From: Fusarium oxysporum f. sp. lycopersici 4287
Taxonomy: Eukaryota > Ascomycota > Sordariomycetes > Hypocreales > Nectriaceae
DNA: 64,000 bases
Direction: 5' to 3'
Assembly (NCBI RefSeq): GCF_000149955.1
Contig: NC_030989.1
Span: 2,923,839 to 2,987,838, forward strand
Below, piece after piece: positions 1-36,999 of this stretch (the first letter of the stretch is position 1; each line of letters opens with the position of its first letter). The notes beneath the pieces were generated by a model that saw only the letters and a list, made by a program, of their open reading frames with translations, was not told the origin of the DNA and did not search any database. Made by a program: the position numbers and the translations under genes.

Positions 1-951
1 AAGGAACACTGACGAGATAATTCATCGTCTTATCATCCTTGAAGTAGGTATCAGCACCGTAGAACTCCAAGTGCTTAGCGCCATCGATCAAGCCACCACA
101 AGCCTTGATAACCTTCTTGAGACTGATACCAACGTAGTTTGCAGTACCGATTGCTCCTTCGGCCCAAGGTGCCTGGGGAACTTCGTCACCCTGGCCCGGG
201 TATTTGAGAATTTGCTCAATACGACGAGTTCCAGAGCACTGGATTGTAACGTTCTTGGTCATACGAGGGAACTTTGACTCGTCCATGAGGTCATCTAGGG
301 TGAAGGACTTGGGGTTTGCAACGAGACCATCCATGAGGAAGCTGAAGTCTTCTTTGTTGATGATAGGAATTCCGCCGTGGTTTCGCACAAAGTGAAGGGA
401 GTTGGGAGTGAATTCCTTGTCAGTGACTAAGCGCTTGGGCGGCTCGCCGTTGTAAGGGAATTGCAAAAGGTGCAGCATATCAGGGTGCTTCTCTTTGAGA
501 ACAGTAGCCCATGAATCATCAGGAACGCTGGTGAGTTCACCTCCAATGGCATGATGCCACATCTTCCAGTGCGTGCCTGGGAGAACAGGGTTGGTTCCCG
601 GAATAGGACCAAATTGGAACTCAGGGTTAGGAGGGAATGTCTGTGACGTCAAGATCTTGTGCGCAGCAGCCTTTTTGTCAGGGTAATTCTCCCACTCAAC
701 GAAGCTTCGCGGGTCAGCTTGGTATGATACACTTGAGAAGAGTCTTACCCAACCCAACCCTTGCGTTCACGAGTGAAGAGCTTCTCACGATCACCGACCG
801 ACTTGATAGCTTCTTCATCTATAGTAAGATCCCCAAAGACCTGAGGATCAAGAACCTTGGTCTTTGGTCCGGTTTGGTCCAGTATAGGGAGGACCGCGCC
901 GGAGAGACCTTGCTCGATCTTCCATTCATCAGGACGATTGGAAGTCTTCAT
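1..951 (-). CDS. Molybdenum-cofactor oxidoreductase, sulfite oxidase/nitrate reductase superfamily (5' part only)
   Basis: Minus-strand gene running off the left edge. Exon 1 is 951-749 and exon 2 is 704-1; the 44-bp intron (748-705) has a GTAAGA donor and a CTGAC branch site, and splicing joins RKGWVG to FVEWENYP in frame. The molybdopterin-domain signature is clear: HFVRNHGG, then QCSGTRR, whose Cys is the expected molybdenum ligand, then PWAEGAIGTANYVG. There is no N-terminal cytochrome b5 domain and no visible targeting peptide, unlike classical animal sulfite oxidase; the C-terminal dimerisation domain lies outside the window. Likely a cytosolic Mo enzyme acting on sulfite or a related substrate; the substrate is not readable from the sequence. 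It shares a divergent promoter with the catalase gene. Confidence 0.85.
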
Positions 952-3740: not shown

Positions 3741-5222
3741 ATGACGCCTCTTTCGCTTCTGGACTGTCCCAAAGAGGTTCAACTCAGCATTGCTGAACTT
3801 CTTCTTCAAGCCGATGTGGCCAATCTCTCCTTGTCGTGTCGAGGCTTGCACAGCCTTACCGAGCCGCTCGTTTACTCCACCATCCAGATCATATGGACGA
3901 GGCAGTATTATCCACCCATCCCAAAAGCGCTGCTGTTACTCCGAACTTTGCTGGAAAGACCAGATCTACGGAACCATGTTCGTTCTATCGAGTTCGGTGG
4001 TAATGGATTCATTGACTATGATGATCCTCCATGGCCTGGTGAAACGCCAGAACCGCCTGAGGTGCCGAATCTTCCCCTCGATGAGCTCAATGCAGCGATC
4101 AGAAGGACTGGAGTGTCTGAGTCCAGCGTAAATGAATGGACGTCTAAAGTACTATACTCCGATCGCCACAGGTACTTACACTTTGGAGAAGAGCTCCAGC
4201 TGGGTATTATCCAGAAAACTCAATCCGCAACTTCCGATGCCGCTGCAGCTGTCATCGTTTCTCTGCTAAAGAAATTGGAGAGACTTGCTGTCTCCGAGAA
4301 TTGGTACAATGAGGCGCGACTCTTGGGTCTCATGTTTCAGCTGGCACTCTGCAGGACAAACCAACACTCTACTCAAAGCTCCCAGCCCACCTTTAGTTTT
4401 CTGAATTATGTCTCACTCGACCCAATGCTACACGAGGACACAAATACGGAACCCGACAAGGTCGACCAAGATATTTGCTTGTTCTACTTGCCTTGTATCC
4501 AGCATCTCTCCACCTCAATCCAGAATCCCACGCCATTCTCGTGGCCCTGCGCTTCAGCCCCGAACCCAGTGTCCTTGACCTCATTAGACATTTTCAGACT
4601 CCGAGAAACACGCCTCGCTCCAGTTTTATCTGCAACAAAAAACCTCAGGAAGCTGAAGTACAATTGGTTCTACCGACCCGACCTTGATGAGGAGGTTAGC
4701 ACTTCTACGCTAATGCTGGATGAATTGGCAATGGCGCTCCTCGAGGTCAAAGATTCGCTAGAGGATCTAGAAATCATTGCCGAGACATGTCCCGCGTATA
4801 CAATGGGAGATTATGATCCACCTGATTTTACATTTCACGAGTCGTTGGCAGAGATGAGAAGCATGCGCAGGCTTAAGACTTTAAATGTTCCTTGGTCATT
4901 TCTGACCGGCATGACTGATTTTTCTGCCACTGGACGTCTTGGAAATGCGCTGCCCCAAAATCTGGAGTACCTCATACTAAGCCGCTTTCGTCTACGACCT
5001 ACACCATATAATGATCGAGATGGAGTCATGATTTCCGCTTTCGAGAGGGAACTGGAAACTGGTAGTTTATCGCATCTGACTCAATTGAAGAGCGTCAAGC
5101 TACCGCCGTCTTTCGTCAGTCGTGGGATGTCAGAGGCATGCGAGGAAAGGATTGCAGCACTTGGGAAGAAGTTTGACTTGAAGCTGGAAAGCCAGAAGAG
5201 GGACTTGAGTAGGATTATATAG
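3741..5222 (+). CDS. F-box protein
   Basis: Intronless 493-residue frame. The N-terminus (about residues 5-45) reads as an F-box: LLDCPKEVQLSIAELLLQADVANLSLSC, then RGLHSLTEPLVYSTIQI. F-box proteins recruit substrates to SCF ubiquitin ligases through Skp1. The remaining 440 residues are leucine-rich with irregular repeat-like stretches (for example LRKLKYNWFY, LEDLEII, LKSVKLP), as in many fungal F-box/LRR-like proteins, but no canonical LRR consensus can be drawn. Such genes are numerous and variable in filamentous ascomycetes; the substrate is unknown. Confidence 0.8.
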   Translation: MTPLSLLDCPKEVQLSIAELLLQADVANLSLSCRGLHSLTEPLVYSTIQIIWTRQYYPPIPKALLLLRTLLERPDLRNHVRSIEFGGNGFIDYDDPPWPGETPEPPEVPNLPLDELNAAIRRTGVSESSVNEWTSKVLYSDRHRYLHFGEELQLGIIQKTQSATSDAAAAVIVSLLKKLERLAVSENWYNEARLLGLMFQLALCRTNQHSTQSSQPTFSFLNYVSLDPMLHEDTNTEPDKVDQDICLFYLPCIQHLSTSIQNPTPFSWPCASAPNPVSLTSLDIFRLRETRLAPVLSATKNLRKLKYNWFYRPDLDEEVSTSTLMLDELAMALLEVKDSLEDLEIIAETCPAYTMGDYDPPDFTFHESLAEMRSMRRLKTLNVPWSFLTGMTDFSATGRLGNALPQNLEYLILSRFRLRPTPYNDRDGVMISAFERELETGSLSHLTQLKSVKLPPSFVSRGMSEACEERIAALGKKFDLKLESQKRDLSRII

Positions 5223-25905: not shown

Positions 25906-26287
25906 CTAACCCGAGATGTTTTCGCTGATCCTCTTCTCAGCTTTAAATTTAGTTGGCGCGATGCAATAAAGCAGATCTTTGGCATACACCGCCGCCATTA
26001 TCACTGCATATCCTTGCTACTCTTTATTCTTATATAAGTTAGAGTAGTTGCAGATGCCTCGAATAACCAGGAATGGAAAGTCATTCATTAAGCCAGCTGC
26101 TTCCATATCGAAACAGAGAACGCCCTTCTTCACTATATGCGCATCCAAAGCAAAGGCATCATTTCATGAGCCTATTCGACGAAGCAATTAGAGCTGTTCC
26201 AAGTAGTAGATGTAGTCGATCCCAGCTTTGCCGCATGGCCAACCATCGGGATATTATCGTGGAAGTGGCATTCGTTGTTCCATCTTG
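25906..26287 (-). pseudogene. Relic of a nucleoside phosphorylase (PNP/UDP family) domain
   Basis: Read on the minus strand: [13 protein letters not shown], then after a one-base shift near 26157-26165 [13 protein letters not shown], then [20 protein letters not shown], then RGICNYSN. The next codons KNKE are followed by TAG (26029-26027) where relatives have Trp, then QGYAVIMAAVYAKDLL. The MEAAGL and RGICxYSD-like motifs are the nucleoside-binding part of the purine/uridine phosphorylase fold that fungi often attach to ankyrin, TPR or NACHT modules. Only this fragment survives; no start or partner domain is visible. TGG-to-TAG is the change expected from RIP (CpA to TpA on the other strand). 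Confidence 0.65.
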
Positions 26288-26289
26288 AC

Positions 26290-26510
26290 CACGTTGTATA
26301 AAGCGAGAGTAAGATGAAAAGGTTTACTGCTACCATCATAAGAAGGATCATTTATTATAGAGTATTATATTATAATAAAGAATAATATATTTATACTTGC
26401 TATACTAATCAAAGTTGATTAAAGTATTTATTATTTAATCTGCCTGAGGTTTAATTATTAAGTGCTTAACCTAGACCAAGTATGAGGTTAGAACTGAGCA
26501 GGAGTTGAAA
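26290..26510. other. AT-rich segment
   Basis: Long runs of A and T (for example TTATTATAGAGTATTATATT and AATATATTTATAC) between the phosphorylase relic and the duplicated segment. No coding potential; typical of mutated repeat DNA. Confidence 0.5.
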
Positions 26511-26514
26511 TACA

Positions 26515-26715
26515 AAGTGTAAAGGGGAACTGTTACGAGGACTGTGGTGGATCAGAGATGAACGTGCCGCGCGGTATGCGATGGTTTCCATTAGGGTTTT
26601 AGAGCAGGTCACGACAGCGTGAATGCTCGACGACCGGTAGTATATTGATATCTCAGCTTGCTAACTTCGCTGCGGTAATATTTCCTTGGTGCAACGATGT
26701 TTGAACCTTGCCAGC
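26515..26715 (+). repeat. Diverged duplicate segment, copy B
   Basis: Partner of 19340-19520. It starts GGGGAACTGTTACGAGGACTG, has an internal deletion relative to copy A near GGATCAGAGATGAACG, and ends with CTTGCCAGCATATCCAG. Its + strand reading is broken by stops. Confidence 0.5.
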
Positions 26716-27378
26716 ATATCCAGCCCAAATCTCGAATCCGACACCAAATATGTCAGCCGTCTCAAGAGCCCGTGTTCGATTAGGCAGAATCCTTCGCATT
26801 AGTCATTTGAATGAAGGCCACTTCGCTTCTGCTCCGAGCACATATGTTTCGTTGATCTGTTCGTGCGTCAAAGGTTTGACTAGTCCTTGTCAGGAAGATG
26901 GTTTGAGCTTTATGGATTTCCATACTTACATCAAGTAGTCGTAGACTTTCGTTCCTTTCTTTTTTGGGAAGTGTACAATGAATAGAGCGGATCATCTGAG
27001 GCTTTGAGCTTTGCAGGGAGAGTTGTACTGGATTATGAGACTGCGTTCTGATTGTCGCTTTGTCGCTTTGTCGATGTTCACGAGCTTGATCCAGGTTGAG
27101 TGTTCGGTGGCGGCTGATGAGTGTTTGGTGTGCCGTTGATGAGGTCAGCGATACTGGGATTACGAAAGTGATCATTTTGTGGAATACTTGTTTCTTCTTC
27201 CTTGTCGAAGGTGACATCGGTGATAAGAATAAGGATGCCAAAGTAGTGCAACGCCCTGTTGAGATGCTCGTTGGTAACTACAGTCGTCTCTCGAGAGTTT
27301 GCGCCGATTGGCAAGACATAAGAGACGTGCTTGACTCATCTACTACTTTGTTCTCGGTCACTTGTCTGATGACAGGCA
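26716..27378. other. Intergenic up to assembly gap
   Basis: No gene can be supported. Frames on both strands here are short and lack motifs. Confidence 0.4.
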
Positions 27379-27686
27379 NNNNNNNNNNNNNNNNNNNNNN
27401 NNNNNNNNNNNNNNNNNNNNNNNNNNNNNNNNNNNNNNNNNNNNNNNNNNNNNNNNNNNNNNNNNNNNNNNNNNNNNNNNNNNNNNNNNNNNNNNNNNNN
27501 NNNNNNNNNNNNNNNNNNNNNNNNNNNNNNNNNNNNNNNNNNNNNNNNNNNNNNNNNNNNNNNNNNNNNNNNNNNNNNNNNNNNNNNNNNNNNNNNNNNN
27601 NNNNNNNNNNNNNNNNNNNNNNNNNNNNNNNNNNNNNNNNNNNNNNNNNNNNNNNNNNNNNNNNNNNNNNNNNNNNNNNNNNNNNN
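27379..27686. other. Assembly gap (308 N)
   Basis: Unresolved bases. The flanks show no obvious repeat; any frame crossing it is artificial. Confidence 1.
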
Positions 27687-27893
27687 AAGTTGAGGGGATT
27701 TGGGGAGGGAGGAGAATACCATGACGCGTTCGGCTCGAGGGAGGCAATGATTCAGAGGCGCCAGGCGCCTCAAAATTTCGCTGATTTAAACACTCCAGCG
27801 TTCAACGGATGAACCACGCGACTCCCCCAGGAGAGAAGTCACTAAAACGGTCTCATTCACAAACTTTCATTATTTACAAAGACCTCCTAGGAA

Positions 27894-29315
27894 CTACAAC
27901 CTCTTGATCAACTTCTTACTCAACATAAGTCTCGAGACAACAATCAAAAACGTCGCAGCAGACCCAACACCCGCCGCGTAAAAGATAGCAGCTCTATACG
28001 GCTCAATCGACGAAGCCTCCGACGCACCCGCAGCATCAATCAAGATCCCCGCCAACGGCGCTCCCATCAAGTATCCAGGTGTCCAGAATGACGTCATCAG
28101 ACTAATAGACGCAGCAGCTGATCCAGGCGCAAGTGCAGCTACAGCTGTCGGCAGTGCAACAAAGAAACTTCCATTGGCACACCCGTTGATGATGGCGAAG
28201 GCGAAGAGTGGCGGGAGTGATGAACTGACAGGCCAGATTGCTAGCATGGACACACTGTTGATGAGGGCTGCAAGCGCGAGGGAGTTGAAGGCGCCAATGC
28301 GATCACAGATCCAACCACCGAAGAGACGACCAACGGCTGTAGATGCGCCGAAGCCTGCGACAAGCCCGGCGCCTGTTGAAGCAGAGAGACCAATCGACCT
28401 CGCGAATACGGGTAAGAAGAATGGAGGCACAAAGAGAGCGAATACTCCGACAGCGCCTGACATGGTGAGCGTGAGAAAAGGCATGCTCCTTAACTGTGAC
28501 CAGTCAAATCTCGATGTTGTTGCACCGCGAGTAAGCTCTGTGAGAAGAAAGGCGCATGGAATTCCAGTGATAAGAATTGAAGCACCGAGAATCCGGAAAG
28601 TCCACTGAAGCCCAACCTTGTCGATCATGGCTTGCGTTGCCAAAGGAAGCACAGTTGCGCCAACGCCGCCTCCCGCTTTGACGATTCCATTAGCTGTACC
28701 GAGCTTCCGACTAAACCATTGAGTGGGCATGGTGTTTGTAGCCGTGTAGAGCAGAGAGGTTGATAGACCAACGAGTAGCCCAGCGATGCAGAAAAGACCC
28801 GCGAGATGCTCGAGGGTGAAACTCGTGATGATCAAGCCTGATCCAAAGAAGATTGTCGCTACGAGACTGGTGATGCGAATGCCATATTCTCTTGATAATC
28901 TGACCGATATCAAGCCAAACGCGACCATGCAGGCCATGTATAAACTTCCAACAAAGGTAATGGTTCGAATATTAGTGTGAAGTCGAGGCGACTGAACAAT
29001 GGCAGCTTGCAAAACTCCCCATGCTGTAGTGTACCCATTTATCCAGAAGAGTAGAGTGAAGCATGATCCGACAATTGTCCAGCCATACCCGCCATCGGGA
29101 ATTGCACTTGTGGCGTGTTCCGGTGGCTCTTCCTCGTTTCTCACGATATCTTTTGTGGTGTTGAGTGGACTCTGGCTTGAAGAAGACATCTTGATAGCAT
29201 CGCCTTGGCGCGATGGATCCATGCTGGATGTTGTGATGGACTCTGCGACCGTGTTTGTAGCCATTTTGATAGTGGTGGATGATTCGGTGAATGAACCATG
29301 ACAAAGAATGAGCAC
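27894..29315 (-). CDS. MFS transporter, monocarboxylate-porter type
   Basis: Intronless, 473 residues from ATG 29315; the start at ATG 29264 (MATNTVAES) is equally good. A Ser/Thr-rich cytosolic N-terminus of about 70 residues is followed by IPDGGYGWTIV, the signature of the monocarboxylate transporter family, and about 12 membrane segments. Other marks: FGLISVRLSREYGIRITSL, QWFSRKLGTANGIVKAGGGVGA, and GRLFGGWICDRIGAFNSL (loop 8-9 motif). Fungal members move monocarboxylates, riboflavin or unknown organic acids across the plasma membrane; the substrate is not predictable. No metabolic partner gene is adjacent. Confidence 0.88.
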   Translation of the reverse strand: MLILCHGSFTESSTTIKMATNTVAESITTSSMDPSRQGDAIKMSSSSQSPLNTTKDIVRNEEEPPEHATSAIPDGGYGWTIVGSCFTLLFWINGYTTAWGVLQAAIVQSPRLHTNIRTITFVGSLYMACMVAFGLISVRLSREYGIRITSLVATIFFGSGLIITSFTLEHLAGLFCIAGLLVGLSTSLLYTATNTMPTQWFSRKLGTANGIVKAGGGVGATVLPLATQAMIDKVGLQWTFRILGASILITGIPCAFLLTELTRGATTSRFDWSQLRSMPFLTLTMSGAVGVFALFVPPFFLPVFARSIGLSASTGAGLVAGFGASTAVGRLFGGWICDRIGAFNSLALAALINSVSMLAIWPVSSSLPPLFAFAIINGCANGSFFVALPTAVAALAPGSAAASISLMTSFWTPGYLMGAPLAGILIDAAGASEASSIEPYRAAIFYAAGVGSAATFLIVVSRLMLSKKLIKRL

Positions 29316-30624: not shown

Positions 30625-30792
30625 CTATTCTCTCCCTGGTTCTAGATGCCATTCGTAAGAGGGTGCACGTCTTTTGGCGATATTGATTTTTTCCTGGGCA
30701 TTGGCGTTGAGTCTGTACCCTGTGAAATATATCCATGCGAAGAATTCGATACGGCCACAAGGCACGCAATACTTTATGTCCTTCTTACACAT
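30625..30792 (-). CDS. Small Met-Cys protein, short-spacing type, probably degenerate
   Basis: A 55-residue frame starting at ATG 30792. The N-terminus has C2-x6-C9-x2-C12 (MCKKDIKYCVPC), then an aromatic segment (FAWIYFTGY) that lines up with LKWVYCPSY of the neighbour at 31097-31408. No cysteine occurs after residue 12 and the rest is basic/acidic filler, so it may be a decayed copy. Upstream in-frame sequence could start at 30861, but the Met-Cys start is chosen because all array members share it. Confidence 0.4.
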   Translation of the reverse strand: MCKKDIKYCVPCGRIEFFAWIYFTGYRLNANAQEKINIAKRRAPSYEWHLEPGRE

Positions 30793-31096
30793 CTTAACCT
30801 TTACTGATTCTGAGTATCGAACTAAGAACTGGTATTGTAAGCAAGCAGTTGGGGGTTGCATAAGATGTGAAATGGTGGCATGACATGAATTTATAGGTTT
30901 AACTGCGACGTATCAGGTGCCAAATAGCTATGAAGCATTGCAAGTAGAACGGCCTTTGATTGATCAAACTTGAGGGGCCTAAATGAGGTAGCCAACGAAT
31001 GCTTGTTCAACGAATGGCTGGGGTGGTGGGAATCCAACTCTACATCAGACTACCAAATAACTGACTCGGTGATGTCTATCGACCAACAACATAACA

Positions 31097-31408
31097 TTAC
31101 GCCTCTGTTACTTTTCCATGCTCCTCCTCATTCGACTTGTCACCTTCAGGTTGTTTCTCTATTATTTTATCCTTCGCCTCCTTGGTTTCCTCCTTCGGGG
31201 CTTCCTTCTTGCTAGGGCATTCTGGATTCGGGCAAGTCTCAGGATTGAACGTGCCACTCACAGTAGTTCTCATTTCCCCATTGATCACCAATGGTGATGG
31301 GTGGAAGGTCGTCGAAGTAGTCAGTCCCAAATATGATGGGCAATATACCCACTTCAAAGTCTCGGTATGCTCGCAGGCAGTACAGTATATTATCTCGCGG
31401 ATGCACAT
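31097..31408 (-). CDS. Small cysteine-rich protein, short-spacing type with charged tail
   Basis: 103 residues from ATG 31408. N-terminal C2-x6-C9-x2-C12 (MCIREIIYCTAC), one Cys in WVYCPSY, then TCPNPECPSKKE giving C-x4-C, followed by a Lys/Glu-rich tail of about 35 residues (KEAPKEETKEAKDK). The second C-x2-C and the C-terminal Trp/Pro motif of the main family are absent. No signal peptide or membrane segment. It could bind one zinc ion; function unknown. Confidence 0.55.
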   Translation of the reverse strand: MCIREIIYCTACEHTETLKWVYCPSYLGLTTSTTFHPSPLVINGEMRTTVSGTFNPETCPNPECPSKKEAPKEETKEAKDKIIEKQPEGDKSNEEEHGKVTEA

Positions 31409-32223
31409 GTTGTCGCTGGCGTAAATAATAGTCTTGGAAGTAATTTCTTCGTTAATGGATTAGAAGGTTTTCTTTTCAAGCTTTGTTGCTGGAGGGTTGA
31501 GTTCTCATTCAGTGCTGGATTTTATAGGCGCCTTTTGGGAGTCCCATGCGCTCGGGAATATGACATAGTCCCTGATTTAAATTAAGTGGCCTAGTGACAA
31601 GTGAATCAAAATGCGATGAATCATTCCATACGGTATAAGATAAAGTCTAGAGCTGAATGAAAAGACATCATACAATATGCCCATACCGAAATCGGCCTTT
31701 AGTCAATAGTCAGGGACTACTGAAGCATCGCCTCGTTTGGACGTAAGCACTGTAAGAATGTATTGCAGGTCGAAAGCAGAAGCAAGTAGCAATATCAGAG
31801 GGATGAATACTGGAACTTCTAGAATGAAGATGCAATCTCCATATTTTGAATCAGGTTTCAGAGTGTCTCGTAGCCATTGCCCTGGAGATAGCCATGTACG
31901 TCAAGCGAAGTCAGCACATTTCCCTGGTTGGACTACCGTCTTCAGCTATTAAAGATCAAAGTCACCATAACAAGAGCCAGGCTTCTACATATCAGGTGAT
32001 GTTCATTGTTTTATAGAGTCACTTTTGGAAATAACTCAAAACTCTCCTCGATGTCACTGTTTTAGAAAGCTAGCGCAATACCAGTGTCTTTTATTTCAGC
32101 TATCGGATATTGACTCCCACTATCTAGGCCCCCCTTCTAACATTTGCTACACGACTAATCCATGAATTATAGTCCAGTCAGGTCGTTAACCGCCATCGAA
32201 CTCCCAAGCCGCTGAGTGGATGC

Positions 32224-32469
32224 TTAGAAGAAAGGAGCGTCAGGGGTATAGGATTTTCCCGAAGCCAGCCAGGCATTGTACTGGGCCACACATGTTACGC
32301 AATGATCGAACGTGGAACTCCTGTCCTGATCAACTTCAGAACAGTTGCTCAAGTCACAGCGCTCCTTCTCATCCTTGCGAGCCTTTTCACATCGCCTGAT
32401 TTCAAGGTCGACGCCTGTCGACATGTGGCACCGTCTGCAGCGGTAAGTGATGTTTGTAAGCCAGCACAT
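32224..32469 (-). CDS. Eight-cysteine microprotein, array member 1
   Basis: 81 residues from ATG 32469. I prefer this start to the in-frame ATG 32541 because every paralog begins Met-Cys. Cysteines at 2, 11, 14, 27, 38, 43, 57 and 60 fit the lattice exactly: YRCRRCH, IRRCEKA, ERCDLSNC, DHCVTC. The C-terminus has the shared tail Q-Y-NAW followed by a Pro-x2-Pro-Phe-like ending (TPDAPFF). No signal peptide, so intracellular. The two C-x2-C knuckles suggest zinc binding; function unknown. Confidence 0.65.
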   Translation of the reverse strand: MCWLTNITYRCRRCHMSTGVDLEIRRCEKARKDEKERCDLSNCSEVDQDRSSTFDHCVTCVAQYNAWLASGKSYTPDAPFF

Positions 32470-33333
32470 TGTGAGCAGTAGTTTATTAGAAGTGTCAAAA
32501 AGTGTTAGCGGTAGTATAATACTGTAAAGTTGTAATGTCATGTAGTGTTGATTTTGATGTAAGAGGGAGAAATCTTCTTGAGGCTAGGATGACGGGTTTA
32601 TATACTTGGGAAAAGCCAGTGATTCACGAGGGCAATATATCGACACTAGGTATCTTGGCCTTACAGAGCTTACAATCCTTTAATACAAGCTTCATGGTTT
32701 TGTAACACGATATAGGGCTCAGTGACTCAACTTCGCAGTCTCTGGGATGCCCCGGATGGTATGGAGCCTAATAGAACTGAGCCATGAAAGTTGGCTGTCA
32801 ATGCCTGGTTCAGGTCACATCTCCAGGTATATCAGACGTGATGGACAGTAACTTGCCTAAGCCAAATTTTGCTGCAATCACGTCGATAGACTGGCGGTAG
32901 ATGACCCCTTGGATCCTCATCAGCACAATCTGTTCAGAAGTCGTGAATTCTATACGTGAGCTTGCTGAGATTATCTGCTGTACGACTATTCATGGAATTA
33001 CTAGATCTGGAGGTCATCAAGTCAAGGTCACAGATAAATCGCTGGATTCGAGGTTGCAGCGGCAAATAATATCCGTATATTTTCTCTAGCTCTTAAACTT
33101 CGGGGTTTTCATGTTAGCCTCATGCATTGAAAAGAACCTGAGTGGGCGGAAAAGAACCCATTGCATATCTTTTGAACCAGCAGTACGAGAGAATCATTTC
33201 AGTAGGTCAGCTGTCACCTAGCTCAAATTAGGTTGAGACCATAAAAGATACGCCTAATGTCTACCATAAGAGCCAAAAGCTACCGCCTAAGATTGACAGC
33301 CCAAACTTCTATGGGCCCATCCCAATCTCGTTT

Positions 33334-33588
33334 CTAGGTAAAAGGTGGAATGGGATAGTAGGGTCTTCCCGCTGCCACAGCTGCCTGCCATCGATCGTAC
33401 TCCCTCTGACATGCAGTGCATTCAAGCCATCTCAAAAGTCGATTTACTGTCCCGTCGGTACAATCCTCCAAATTACAACGCCATTTGCCCGCCACAGTCG
33501 CTCTGGGGCATGTCCGGGTGCTGTACTCGTCACGTATCACCTGGCCACACCGTAAGCACCGGAAGTAAGTGGTGACACAGACGCACAT
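33334..33588 (-). CDS. Eight-cysteine microprotein, array member 2
   Basis: 84 residues. Lattice cysteines at 2, 11, 14, 27, 38, 43, 57 and 60, plus an extra Cys at 4. Knuckles are FRCLRCG and LECTACQ; the tail is EYDRW, then YYPIPPFT. The spacing of all eight cysteines matches members 1 and 6 exactly while the residues between them differ, the pattern expected when only a metal-binding core is conserved. Confidence 0.65.
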   Translation of the reverse strand: MCVCVTTYFRCLRCGQVIRDEYSTRTCPRATVAGKWRCNLEDCTDGTVNRLLRWLECTACQREYDRWQAAVAAGRPYYPIPPFT

Positions 33589-34113
33589 ATTAGGGCGTTT
33601 TGATATCTAGCGATATTCTATTTATTTATAGTCGGATCTATCGTGGTGGGAATGTGGGTAAAGGAGGGAAACCGTTCCAGCCTCTGAGATTGACGAAATA
33701 GATATACTTGGAGACCATGAGTGATTCGCAGCGAGACACTTGCGTGCGTGGAAGGATTTGTGTTCCACTGGATGTAGCAAACGTTACGGCTCTTTATAGA
33801 TGTAACTCGAGTTTCACAATTACAGTGATGAAATCAAGATTGTATCAAAAGTGTAACATGTCGGATTGGATAAAATAGGGCCTGCCATTGCACCACGTCA
33901 ATGGAATGATCATCTAACTGAGCAAAGCTAACCAATGTTACACAACATCTATTCCAGAACAATTTTATTCAAATCAGTGAATCTAGTTCTTCATAGTTAT
34001 CCATCGATTAATTAGGCATGATGTATTAGCAAGATTTGCTTATCGTAGTGTATTTCTGGTAAACTGAAAGCTATTATATCAAAGCATGTTCTTCTTCCAG
34101 GCTATCTAGGATA

Positions 34114-34389
34114 TCATTTCACATAGTCCTCATAGCCAGGGAAAGGTGGATCAGGTCTCGGAACATGGTCACCCGTATCTACACGCAACTTCCAACAAAT
34201 GAAAAGTTGAAAACACGCTTTACACTGCTTGAAAGAACCCGAAATATCCGAGGGGGGTTCCCACCTGGCATTGAGGCAAACGTGAATGCCTTTTGCAATG
34301 GCTTGGGAACATCGTCTGACTTGGACATCAGATTTCACGTGATACTTACAGCGTTCACAGTGGTGCAACACGTTTTTGGCTTCGCACAT
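34114..34389 (-). CDS. Eight-cysteine microprotein, array member 3 (one Cys missing)
   Basis: 91 residues from ATG 34389; an upstream in-frame ATG at 34500 would add 37 residues lacking family features. Cysteines at 2, 11, 14, 27, 38, 56 and 59 (HHCERCK, VRRCSQA, KQCKAC). The position of Cys43 holds Trp, so one predicted ligand is lost. The tail (PRPDPPFPGY) extends about eight residues beyond the others. Possibly a diverging copy. Confidence 0.55.
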   Translation of the reverse strand: MCEAKNVLHHCERCKYHVKSDVQVRRCSQAIAKGIHVCLNARWEPPSDISGSFKQCKACFQLFICWKLRVDTGDHVPRPDPPFPGYEDYVK

Positions 34390-34957
34390 ATTGGGACTCA
34401 CTTTTTGAGCTTGAAGGAATCCTTTAGTTTGGCGAAAAAGTAATATGAGATAATTATAGCATCGTAGGTGATATAAACGGTAAGGAACTTTGTACGTCAA
34501 ATGAGAATAAGTCTTTTGAAAGAACGATGATCAAATTTGTATGTATTGAGAGGGCCAATGATTCATGAACTGCATATCGATTATCGATGCGCATTACTTG
34601 AGTAATCAGTGTGGCAGAAAAATAATGTGTCAAGACACCGAGAGGCAACTAGACTGAGTAACGGGTGAAGGCGCGCAAAATCTCGTATCTCAGCTAGTCC
34701 GCTATAAATTACTCATGTTCAAAACAGCTTTCAGGCACTGTATTACCTCAAAAGCAAGAGCACTTCATAATTCATCGTGGTCCTATACAACACGGCGGCC
34801 CATTCCGCCAGGAACCTAAGGGCTCATACAAAAGCGCTGACTCTATAATCAATCCTTCACTGGGTCACTGGTGTGATCAAAGCTAAACATAAGTCAGATA
34901 GTTTAATTCAGAGCTTCTTTACTATGGAAGGATCCATACCTTCCCATAAATGTCAAC

Positions 34958-35218
34958 TTAGTAACGTCGGAATGGAAGATAAGGGTCTGGAACGGGCCAT
35001 CCTCGTCTCAGATCCTCCTGCCACTGATTGAACTCTCTTGTACATGCCGAACAACTGGTCCACGGCTCTGTCCTCCAGATGGGTGCCATCGAAGTAATAT
35101 TACAGCAGCAGCTGACGCCTTGCTGCAGGGCCGTCATACATCTTGTAATGTTGACTACGGAGCCGAGGCCTTTATTGCAGCGTTCGCACTTGTAGAATAT
35201 AGCTGTCCTGTCACACAT
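34958..35218 (-). CDS. Eight-cysteine microprotein, array member 4
   Basis: 86 residues. Cysteines at 2, 11, 14 and 27, a triplet at 37-39, then 56 and 59 (YKCERCN, ITRCMTA, TSCSACT). No Cys occurs at 42-43, so the extra cysteines of the triplet may compensate. The tail has REFNQW and ends PYLPFRRY. Intracellular by absence of a signal peptide; function unknown. Confidence 0.6.
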   Translation of the reverse strand: MCDRTAIFYKCERCNKGLGSVVNITRCMTALQQGVSCCCNITSMAPIWRTEPWTSCSACTREFNQWQEDLRRGWPVPDPYLPFRRY

Positions 35219-35652
35219 AATGAACGCTTCTCTTTAACATAAGTTCGAATTCTGGAATATTCTCCGCTTGGAGTTTGAGAAGAGGATAATGGCCTTTGGG
35301 CGTTACTAATGATAGCAGGCTGGATAGTGTGGAGGGAGAGACAGTATTCCCATATCGTATAGAACTTTTATATGTATTCCTCATTTTGGGTCTAATCACG
35401 AACTGTAAGTCATTAGTAATACTGATAAATAGTAAAATAGATATTGAAGATCACTAACAGCAAGGGCGGAATGACTTATATTTGACCACTGTCCAGAGCC
35501 CAGCACAATCATCGGAATCACTAAATCAGATTCTACCATATGCTTCTACAATTCCTGTGGCACATAAGACTATCAAACAAGCATGCACCTGGGTTTCACC
35601 GAATAAATGAACTAGCAGTGAGTTAAGTACGATTAGGATTCTACCTCTTCAA

Positions 35653-35904
35653 CTATAGGAATGGTGGATTAGGCTGATAGTAGTGCCCTTGTCGCTGGGA
35701 AGCCAACCATGCGTTGTACTCTGCCATGCAGGATCTACACTGCTGCCAAGGGGTTACCGAATTCGCGTTCCGGTGCTCGCAGTTGCTCTTGGGGCAATCC
35801 CTCCCACGCGCTATAGCCCGCGCACAACAATGACGACGCTCCTCCTCCAGTGTGATTCTCCCACACCGAGCGCATGTATATGTATACTTAACAATAACGC
35901 ACAT
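35653..35904 (-). CDS. Eight-cysteine microprotein, array member 5
   Basis: 83 residues. Cysteines at 2, 11, 14, 26/27, 37, 42, 56 and 59 (YTCARCG, RHCCARA, RDCPKSNC, QQCRSC); the later ones are shifted by one relative to members 1, 2 and 6. The tail has AEYNAWLAS, closest to member 1's QYNAWLAS, and ends QPNPPFL. Members 1 and 5 may be the closest pair. Confidence 0.65.
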   Translation of the reverse strand: MCVIVKYTYTCARCGRITLEEERRHCCARAIARGRDCPKSNCEHRNANSVTPWQQCRSCMAEYNAWLASQRQGHYYQPNPPFL

Positions 35905-36088
35905 GGCAAAAGTAGTCCCAAGGTGATTTCTTGGTATAACTTGGTTTCGTAGAGTTTAGTAAATTCTGTTGATAGAATGTTTTATTTAGAGAAAAGCAAG
36001 CAACCATCGTTCTTGGTTTAACAACATTTTATACCCTAAGAGATACCATGACTAACTCTCATATCTTCACAAACCGTATGATTCAGTT

Positions 36089-36355
36089 TCAAATATTGAT
36101 CATCTCAAATGGTGGAATGGGTTCGTAATAATATCCGCTTTGCTGGGCTGTATACCATGCTGTATATTCTGTAGAGCACGCGTCACATTCCATCCAAAAG
36201 ACTGGCCGTGTGACACTACTTGATGTACATCTATTCGGCGGGCAAATGGGCAGATTGGGGTCAGGGTTTTGTGCACATTTCGCATAATCCTGCTTTGATC
36301 TGGTAATAGCACCACAGCGGCAGCAACGGAAAGAGACATTAACGATATGACACAT
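36089..36355 (-). CDS. Eight-cysteine microprotein, array member 6
   Basis: 88 residues. Cysteines at 2, 11, 14, 27, 38, 43, 57 and 60, plus Cys12 (FRCCRCG, YAKCAQN, PICPPNRC, MECDAC). The tail is TEYTAW, then EPIPPFEMINI. It lies only 184 bp from member 5, the tightest spacing in the array. Function unknown. Confidence 0.65.
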   Translation of the reverse strand: MCHIVNVSFRCCRCGAITRSKQDYAKCAQNPDPNLPICPPNRCTSSSVTRPVFWMECDACSTEYTAWYTAQQSGYYYEPIPPFEMINI

Positions 36356-36747
36356 TGTCTTGTCTAGTTGTTGGTACTTATTGTTAAATCTATTTTTTTT
36401 CTGGATATTTAGGGCTGTATATTGACAAAATGGATGTGAGAGGAAAGGGCCTTCGGAGTGCTAGTACTATGGCTTTATATACTTATAGAAATATGGTGAA
36501 TAACAAACAGTTTCTAGTGTAGGTGAGTGAAAGATGCTGTTTCTGAGTCTTATGATGAGTGAATTAGTCACGGTTTGTATCCACGTAAATATCACTCGAG
36601 ATATGCTATTTGACAGATTTTGAGTCCAATATAGATCACTGCATCAGTGGAGTCCTTTGTGTTTCAGCAATCATATGCGCCTTTTTCTAGCAAAAAGGTC
36701 GAGATTACTACCAAGGTCCGTACCAGTATGCCCACTGCACCACAGCA

Positions 36748-36999
36748 CTACCAAACTTGGTACGATACAAACCCGCCATTTTCTTCTTCCACTTTCACTG
36801 CGTATTACGCTGCAACACAAGTTTCGCAATACCACCAATTCAGTACCCTGTCTTCCAAACTATGTGTGGAATAACGGCTGGCACATCTGTGACGTCGCGA
36901 TCTTGCTCTGGCGGGTCTACATCGCCTGATATCTCGCCCGGTATCTAATACTCCTCTGCATTTGGCGCAGATGTACGATACGGCTATCATGTGGCACAT
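36748..36999 (-). pseudogene. Eight-cysteine microprotein, array member 7, truncated by a stop
   Basis: The frame from ATG 36999 stops at TAA 36807-36805 after 64 residues. Cysteines at 2, 11, 14, 27, 39, 58 and 61 keep both knuckles (YICAKCR, WYCETC), but position 43 is not Cys. The stop falls where relatives have the acidic residue before the Tyr-x2-Trp tail. Beyond it the same frame stays open to TAG 36750-36748, a total of 83 codons, the family length. The likely ancestral change is GAA to TAA. A 64-residue product could still be made. Confidence 0.5.

What the first reader, a model, noticed from the sequence alone, without database searches (positions are those of the whole stretch)
30625..36999. 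Tandem family of microproteins built on a fixed eight-cysteine lattice
Seven neighbouring single-exon frames on one strand (64-91 residues) all start Met-Cys and place cysteines at 2, 11, 14, 27, about 38, about 43, about 57 and about 60; positions 2, 11, 14 and 27 never move. C11-x-[RK]-C14 and the late C-x2-C look like zinc knuckles. Most end with a Tyr/Phe-x2-Trp and a Pro-x-Pro-Pro-Phe-like tail. Between cysteines the sequences are almost unrelated, and the spacers are not copies. That is the signature of an old, fast-evolving tandem family of intracellular metal-binding proteins. I know of no described family with this spacing.
Basis: partly seen in the sequence, partly recalled or inferred. 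Interest (0 to 1): 0.88.

Follow-up and report, generated by a model that had tools for sequence, protein, structure and literature searches.

The report
Fusarium arrays of zinc-finger microproteins
This fungal genome, probably a Fusarium, carries two tandem arrays and several scattered copies of tiny protein frames that differ almost everywhere except at a fixed cysteine spacing; they are predicted to fold around zinc and likely work inside the cell as small binding proteins, and none of the 24 copies checked one by one reached the score cut-off of a Pfam family.

Summary
Seven minus-strand frames (32224-36999) start Met-Cys and keep C2, C11, C14, C27 and a late C-x2-C in 7 of 7. "Eight" is generous: the C43-like cysteine is in 4 of 7. 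The lattice recurs in a second array of 15 frames on contig C9 and at scattered sites: 27 frames found. The arrays match profile to profile (prob 92.9%, E 3.8e-7). All 15 organism-named relatives of the C9 profile are Fusarium hypothetical proteins. No Pfam model reaches its cut-off in 24 of 27 frames checked singly; the nearest is a zinc-ribbon family, 21.7 bits of 23.

AlphaFold2 models of a window protein and of a relative of a C9 frame agree: a hairpin with C11/C14 at its turn, a third strand, a helix starting at the late C-x2-C. The best structural matches, PerR/Fur and plant-virus P1, are weak but carry Zn(Cys)4 sites that fall in register. I infer one Zn(Cys)4 site (C11, C14, C56, C59), a second cysteine cluster (C2, C27, C38, sometimes C43) at the far end, and diverging surfaces that bind partners. 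Metal binding, expression and function are untested. The frames at 30625-31408 have another spacing; kinship is not shown.

The parts
36805..36999 (-). lattice frame 1, 64 aa, stops right after the late C-x2-C; no tail
   Evidence: TATA-like box 91 bases upstream
36089..36355 (-). lattice frame 2, 88 aa, eight lattice cysteines; relative P0004 in Fusarium fujikuroi
   Evidence: TATA-like box at -126
35653..35904 (-). lattice frame 3, 83 aa, eight lattice cysteines; modelled by AlphaFold2 (mean pLDDT 83.2, pTM 0.60)
   Evidence: TATA-like box at -129
34958..35218 (-). lattice frame 4, 86 aa, CCC at 37-39, no C43; relative P0006
   Evidence: TATA-like box at -154
34114..34389 (-). lattice frame 5, 91 aa, no C43; relative P0005 in F. 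oxysporum f. sp. albedinis
   Evidence: no TATA-like box found
33334..33588 (-). lattice frame 6, 84 aa, eight lattice cysteines; relative P0003
   Evidence: TATA-like box at -42
32224..32469 (-). lattice frame 7, 81 aa, eight lattice cysteines
   Evidence: TATA-like box at -135
31097..31408 (-). neighbouring Met-Cys frame, 103 aa, other spacing (C2, C9, C12, C23, C59, C64); look-alikes elsewhere in the genome (L013, L014). Kinship with the seven not shown
   Evidence: TATA-like box at -118
30625..30792 (-). 55-aa Met-Cys frame resembling 31408, with fewer of its cysteines and an early stop; likely a decayed copy
   Evidence: TATA-like box at -103

Best explanation
The seven frames belong to a family of small Met-Cys proteins, spread over two tandem arrays and scattered loci of this genome and found in several Fusarium species, each predicted to fold as a three-stranded sheet plus helix likely held by a Zn(Cys)4 site. 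Shown: the frames, the lattice, the second array, the Fusarium relatives. Predicted: C11/C14 at the hairpin turn and C56/C59 at the helix start make a structural Zn(Cys)4 site at one end of the sheet. Inferred: C2, C27, C37/38 and, in 4 of 7 window frames, C43 meet at the other end as a second metal site or redox-sensitive thiol cluster, which would explain why cysteine 2 is as fixed as the others. Inferred: the proteins stay in the cytoplasm or nucleus and use the variable surface and C-terminal tail to bind different partners (protein or RNA), and the arrays diversify by birth and death.
Against: No metal was measured, and coordinates of the models were not available, so no Cys-Cys distance was checked. 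Structural matches are weak: no Foldseek E <= 0.001; PerR by Foldseek has TM 0.31 and rmsd 9.1; VIA Z stays under 4, where unrelated chains stand beside the zinc proteins. The alignments for the models are shallow (13 and 23 rows) and share rows. Expression is unknown; 13 of the 19 frames examined outside the window lack a TATA-like box, and stretches of the C9 region carry one by chance in 6.0-11.8%. Five of 24 relatives lack a cysteine: P0006 C27 and C39, P0013 C14, P0016 C54, P0017 C53, P0019 C11. dN/dS could not be computed.
Confidence: 0.62

Rival explanations
1. They are disulfide-bonded proteins that leave the cell by an unconventional route and act outside it, as small cysteine-rich effectors of plant-associated fungi do.
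For: Small, cysteine-rich, fast-diverging, in a genus with many plant pathogens; the cysteine number is even in some members.
Against: No leader peptide seen by eye; position 2 is already a cysteine. The basic lattice of eight C9 frames has 7 cysteines, an odd number. Two C-x2-C pairs sit as in zinc sites in both models. Two members score near the cut-off of a zinc-ribbon family.
Confidence: 0.14
2. They are a diverged branch of an already named zinc-ribbon or DUF family, most likely the 3CxxC zinc-binding domain (PF13695).
For: PF13695 (Zn_ribbon_3CxxC) gives 21.7 bits to the C2 member (L035, residues 4-62) and 18.8 to a C9 frame (L022 8142-, residues 7-73), cut-off 23. DUF7895 gives 20.3 bits to frame 36999 across its length. 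Other zinc-ribbon models give weaker hits. The C11-x2-C14-x12-C27 spacing also occurs in ribosomal protein L36 (PDB profile hit E 0.053).
Against: No cut-off is reached by the 24 frames checked singly; PF13695 is listed for 2 of these 24 (E <= 0.1, or <= 10 for the window frames) and for no window frame, DUF7895 for 1.
Confidence: 0.15
3. They are metallothionein-like proteins that buffer or store metal, without a specific partner.
For: Cysteine-rich, many copies; 8 of 9 window frames have TATA-like boxes, which would suit inducible genes.
Against: Cysteine spacing is fixed and the models are ordered with strands and a helix; metallothioneins (recalled) are denser in Cys, use C-x-C and C-C runs and have little regular structure.
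Confidence: 0.07
4. The frames are chance or relic sequence, not genes.
For: Some copies are truncated or interrupted (36999, 30792, L022 8672, L034, L006); five of 24 relatives lack a cysteine; no expression data.
Against: 0 lattice matches in 60 redraws; cysteines kept more than other residues across species; both TGT and TGC are used (32 and 27 of the 59 cysteine codons of the seven frames), so the conservation is in the protein; gene models exist in several Fusarium genomes.
Confidence: 0.02

Closest known systems
Sobemovirus P1 zinc finger (rice yellow mottle virus P1, PDB 6xv2/6ty0)
   Different: Plant-virus protein of 157 aa with a second His/Cys site beyond most of the aligned part; sequence similarity not significant (E 0.58 and 8). 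No role in silencing is shown for the fungal proteins.
Structural Zn(Cys)4 site of Fur/PerR/Zur regulators
   Same: Two C-x2-C pairs, one in a hairpin turn and one at a helix start; range ends place them in register.
   Different: Fur proteins have an N-terminal DNA-binding domain and a regulatory metal site; these proteins begin at the zinc hairpin and most are 63-118 aa.
Pfam PF13695, Zn_ribbon_3CxxC zinc-binding domain
   Same: Two members match over most of their length, 21.7 and 18.8 bits.
   Different: Below the 23-bit cut-off; 2 of 24 frames, none in the window. A search of the own genome with this family did not complete.
Pfam DUF7895
   Same: Weak match of one window frame, 20.3 bits.
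   Different: Below the 27-bit cut-off; 1 of 12 and 0 of 8 members; not found in the own genome, where the control was silent too.
Tandem cysteine-rich effector families of filamentous fungi (recalled)
   Same: Small, cysteine-rich, clustered, fast-diverging.
   Different: No signal peptide seen, fixed Met-Cys start, C-x2-C pairs arranged as in zinc fingers.

Membership tests
Sobemovirus P1-like zinc finger | C-x2-C ... C-x2-C zinc finger (C64, C67, C92, C95) | tested here: met
   Motif present; 6ty0 range ends put the four cysteines in register; the end of the 6xv2 range does not show it for the late pair. Ligands from PMC4488728. Zinc itself not measured.
Sobemovirus P1-like zinc finger | Sequence homology | tested here: inconclusive
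   PDB profile searches: E 0.58 and 8; not listed with A8.
Sobemovirus P1-like zinc finger | Second zinc site H109, C140, H145, C149 | tested here: inconclusive
   Three of the four lie beyond the aligned part 54..127.
Fur/PerR/Zur family | Zn(Cys)4 from two C-x2-C pairs | tested here: met
   Range ends in register with Cys96/99/136/139 (ligands). Zinc itself not measured.
Fur/PerR/Zur family | N-terminal winged-helix DNA-binding domain | tested here: not met
   Both models begin with the zinc hairpin and show no N-terminal helical domain.
Pfam PF13695 Zn_ribbon_3CxxC | Score at or above the 23-bit cut-off | tested here: not met
   Best 21.7 and 18.8 bits in 2 of 24 frames checked singly; profile-profile comparison not run.
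Pfam DUF7895 | Score at or above the 27-bit cut-off | tested here: not met
   Best 20.3 bits, 1 of 12 members; 0 of 8.
Metallothionein | Very high Cys content with little regular structure (recalled) | tested here: not met
   7-9 Cys in 64-91 residues in the window frames, ordered models.
Conventionally secreted cysteine-rich effector | N-terminal signal peptide | tested here: inconclusive
   None seen by eye; Cys at 2, 11, 14 in the first residues; no predictor was available.

The most novel reading that the evidence does not exclude
Fusarium keeps rapidly diversifying arrays of its own zinc-finger microproteins with the fold and zinc motif of plant-virus P1 silencing suppressors, and uses them as redox-sensitive modulators of RNA silencing, for instance in conflict with mycoviruses, mobile elements or a host's small RNAs.
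Probability: 0.06. Interest if true: 0.85.

Novelty: new variant of a known kind. Interest (0 to 1): 0.5.

Why it matters
A family of at least 27 frames in one genome, with gene models across several Fusarium species, reaches no Pfam cut-off in the 24 frames checked, and two of its members are fused in public gene models. Fixed cysteines with almost free positions between them suggest a scaffold whose surface is under pressure to change, as in conflict systems. Naming the lattice lets others find, delete and test the arrays. If the resemblance to the P1 zinc finger reflects function, it would link a fungal gene family to RNA silencing.

Tried and rejected
Rfam found nothing in the window. Pfam and PDB sequence profiles gave no family for the frames; the cut-offs are shown for the first row only, so the statement on cut-offs rests (24 of 27 frames; L022 8672, L029 2012 and L034 1635, all fragments, were not scanned). 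Cytochrome c3 and PHD-type hits in the PDB profile searches (E 0.05-2) look like C-x2-C coincidences. An internal duplication in P0007/P0008 (134-135 aa) was considered and rejected: they are gene models that join two neighbouring frames of the C9 array (L022 4778- and 4258-) across a stop and the second start, at splice-like ends; P0009 is the second frame alone. A cysteine N-degron for the Met-Cys start was considered: PF07847 (PCO/ADO) did not ring in the own genome, but it rang in no control genome either, so nothing follows. Kinship of the 31408-type frames with the lattice family was not supported. A tree of 23 frames is poorly resolved (0 of 20 inner branches starred), but frames group by array (2 changes against 6.7 in shuffles); 4 of the 27 frames, all fragments or partial, were left out of it. 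My first count of cysteine changes (3 of 133 against 143 of 983 in 18 pairs) had left out P0007, P0008, P0013, P0016, P0019 and P0023; one search counts all 24 and is the one used. dN/dS between species was not done: I had no DNA of other Fusarium, and the collections on hand are described as prokaryotic, viral and metagenomic (metagenome scans: 0 allowed); I did not scan them for it. Odds changed on checking: the named-family rival was raised to 0.15 for the PF13695 scores, the best explanation lowered to 0.62, the effector and metallothionein rivals by 0.01 each. Paper searches: (listings only); passages were seen of PMC4488728 and PMC8063818.
Full report
What is there. The window lies at G000:C4:2923839-2987838 of a 61.2 Mb genome in 71 contigs. 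Hits to the window frames with organism names are F. fujikuroi and F. oxysporum; the genome is probably a Fusarium of the oxysporum group (inference). On the minus strand between 32224 and 36999 are seven frames of 64 to 91 residues that begin Met-Cys and keep C2, C11, C14, C27, a cysteine at 37-39 and a late C-x2-C (7 of 7 each). A cysteine near 43 is in 4 of 7. The strict pattern M-C-x8-C-x2-C-x12-C occurs 7 times in the window and in none of 60 redraws. Spacers show no same-strand similarity to one another. Both cysteine codons are used (32 TGT, 27 TGC of 59), so what is conserved is the protein, not recent copied DNA.

Genes or not. 8 of 9 Met-Cys frames of the array have a TATAWAW box 42-154 bases upstream; 5.2% of 5000 random 226-base stretches of the window have one, 6.0-11.8% in three stretches of the C9 region, and 30.1% of minus-strand stretches of the array itself, which include these boxes. 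Of the 19 frames examined outside the window 6 have one. Gene models for relatives exist in several Fusarium genomes. Transcription was not tested.

A wider family. Searching the genome with single members led to C12 (L005), C5 (a fragment, L006), C9 (L010), C11 (L029), C10 (L034) and C2 (L035). Reading around the C9 site showed a second array: 15 frames in 22 kb (C9 about 737.5-759.6 kb), ten on minus and five on plus, none in the next 10 kb. A uniform scan of the 153,012 bases held, most of them fetched because they hold a member, for M-C-x(4-10)-C-x(1,2)-C gives 35 frames: 27 with x8, 6 with x5 or x6 (the 31408 type), and 2 short ones (window 39138, 30 aa; L026 7999, 18 aa). The 27 are thus sorted by the pattern and by x8; what is informative in them is the rest: C14 26, C27 24, a middle cysteine (33-47) 24, late C-x2-C 23, the whole set 19. 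Eight C9 frames share seven cysteines, C2, C11, C14, C27, C37, C53, C56 in the first row's numbers. The profile of the window array plus the C12 member and that of the C9 array match over residues 1-64 and 1-59 (prob 92.9%, E 3.8e-7). The tail with Y/F-x2-W and P-x-P-P-F is not seen by eye in the C9 frames.

Relatives. A profile of the window array found 5 proteins, one the window's own. The C9 profile found 20, of which 15 carry an organism name, all Fusarium (F. oxysporum, F. annulatum, F. verticillioides, F. napiforme, F. mundagurra, F. pseudocircinatum, F. austroafricanum and unnamed species). The search needs shared five-residue words, so absence elsewhere is not shown. Over all 24 relatives, each set against its nearest own gene in the first 62 residues, cysteines changed in 6 of 175 cells and other residues in 167 of 1313 (p 8.1e-5). 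Nine of the 24 pairs share one gene and four another, so the p-value is only a guide. The changes are C27 and C39 in P0006, C14 in P0013, C54 in P0016, C53 in P0017 and C11 in P0019.

Fold. AlphaFold2 on the 35904 frame with 13 rows gave pLDDT 83.2, pTM 0.60: strands 3-11, 17-25, 43-51 and helices 28-32, 57-71. On P0014, an F. oxysporum relative of the C9 frame L026 8666+, with 23 rows, it gave pLDDT 71.6, pTM 0.46: 88-94 in five of the first eight ten-residue blocks, 77, 57 and 79 in the other three, strands 2-11, 17-25, 42-51, helix 54-75, and a low-confidence acidic tail. The two alignments share rows, so the two results are not fully independent. Both put C11/C14 at a hairpin turn and the late C-x2-C at the start of the helix.

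Named families. In the 24 frames checked one by one no Pfam model reaches its cut-off. The nearest are PF13695, the 3CxxC zinc-binding domain, with 21.7 bits for the C2 member and 18.8 for a C9 frame (cut-off 23), and DUF7895 with 20.3 for frame 36999 (cut-off 27). A search of the genome with PF13695 did not complete.

Mechanism. I commit to small intracellular zinc-finger proteins: one structural Zn(Cys)4 site, a second cysteine cluster that may hold metal or sense redox, and a variable surface and tail that bind different partners. The C12 member has no middle cysteine and a His at residue 38, two columns off in the alignment, which would suit a metal ligand better than a disulfide. Array layout, truncated copies (36999, 30792, L022 8672, L034, L006) and low identity fit birth and death. 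What the partners are is open. The link to RNA silencing rests on fold resemblance alone.

What is set apart. The frames at 31100-31408 and 30625-30792 resemble each other, and the first has look-alikes on C1 and C4, but kinship of this group with the lattice family is not supported.

Noticed in passing
L022 (G000:C9:740000-749900), 4043-4778, minus strand: Public gene models P0007 and P0008 join two neighbouring lattice genes into one 134-135 aa protein, skipping the first stop and the second Met-Cys start; likely an annotation error.
   Followed up: yes
window:31097-31408 and 30625-30792; L024, L025: A second kind of Met-Cys frame with spacing C2, C9, C12, C23 and, in some, a C-P-x3-C-P-S-K end, also on C1 and at C4:2.63 Mb; one 244-aa frame on L024 starts the same way.
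   Followed up: partly
L035 (G000:C2:4454864-4455040) and L022 8142-: Two lattice frames score 21.7 and 18.8 bits against PF13695, Zn_ribbon_3CxxC (cut-off 23).
   Followed up: partly
G000:C10:1730364-1730498 (L034): A near copy of the first 45 codons of the C9:758466 gene, then other sequence; looks like a segmental copy.
   Followed up: no
window:22211-23764, minus strand: 518-aa open frame with a retropepsin-like aspartyl protease domain (PF13650, 43.1 bits).
   Followed up: no
window:27379-27686: Run of 308 N inside 26001-28000, the 2-kb bin of lowest GC as listed (0.372; N may lower it).
   Followed up: no
profile A8 against PDB 8fmw_Ah: C11-x2-C14-x12-C27 is also the spacing in ribosomal protein L36 (E 0.053); probably convergent.
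   Followed up: no
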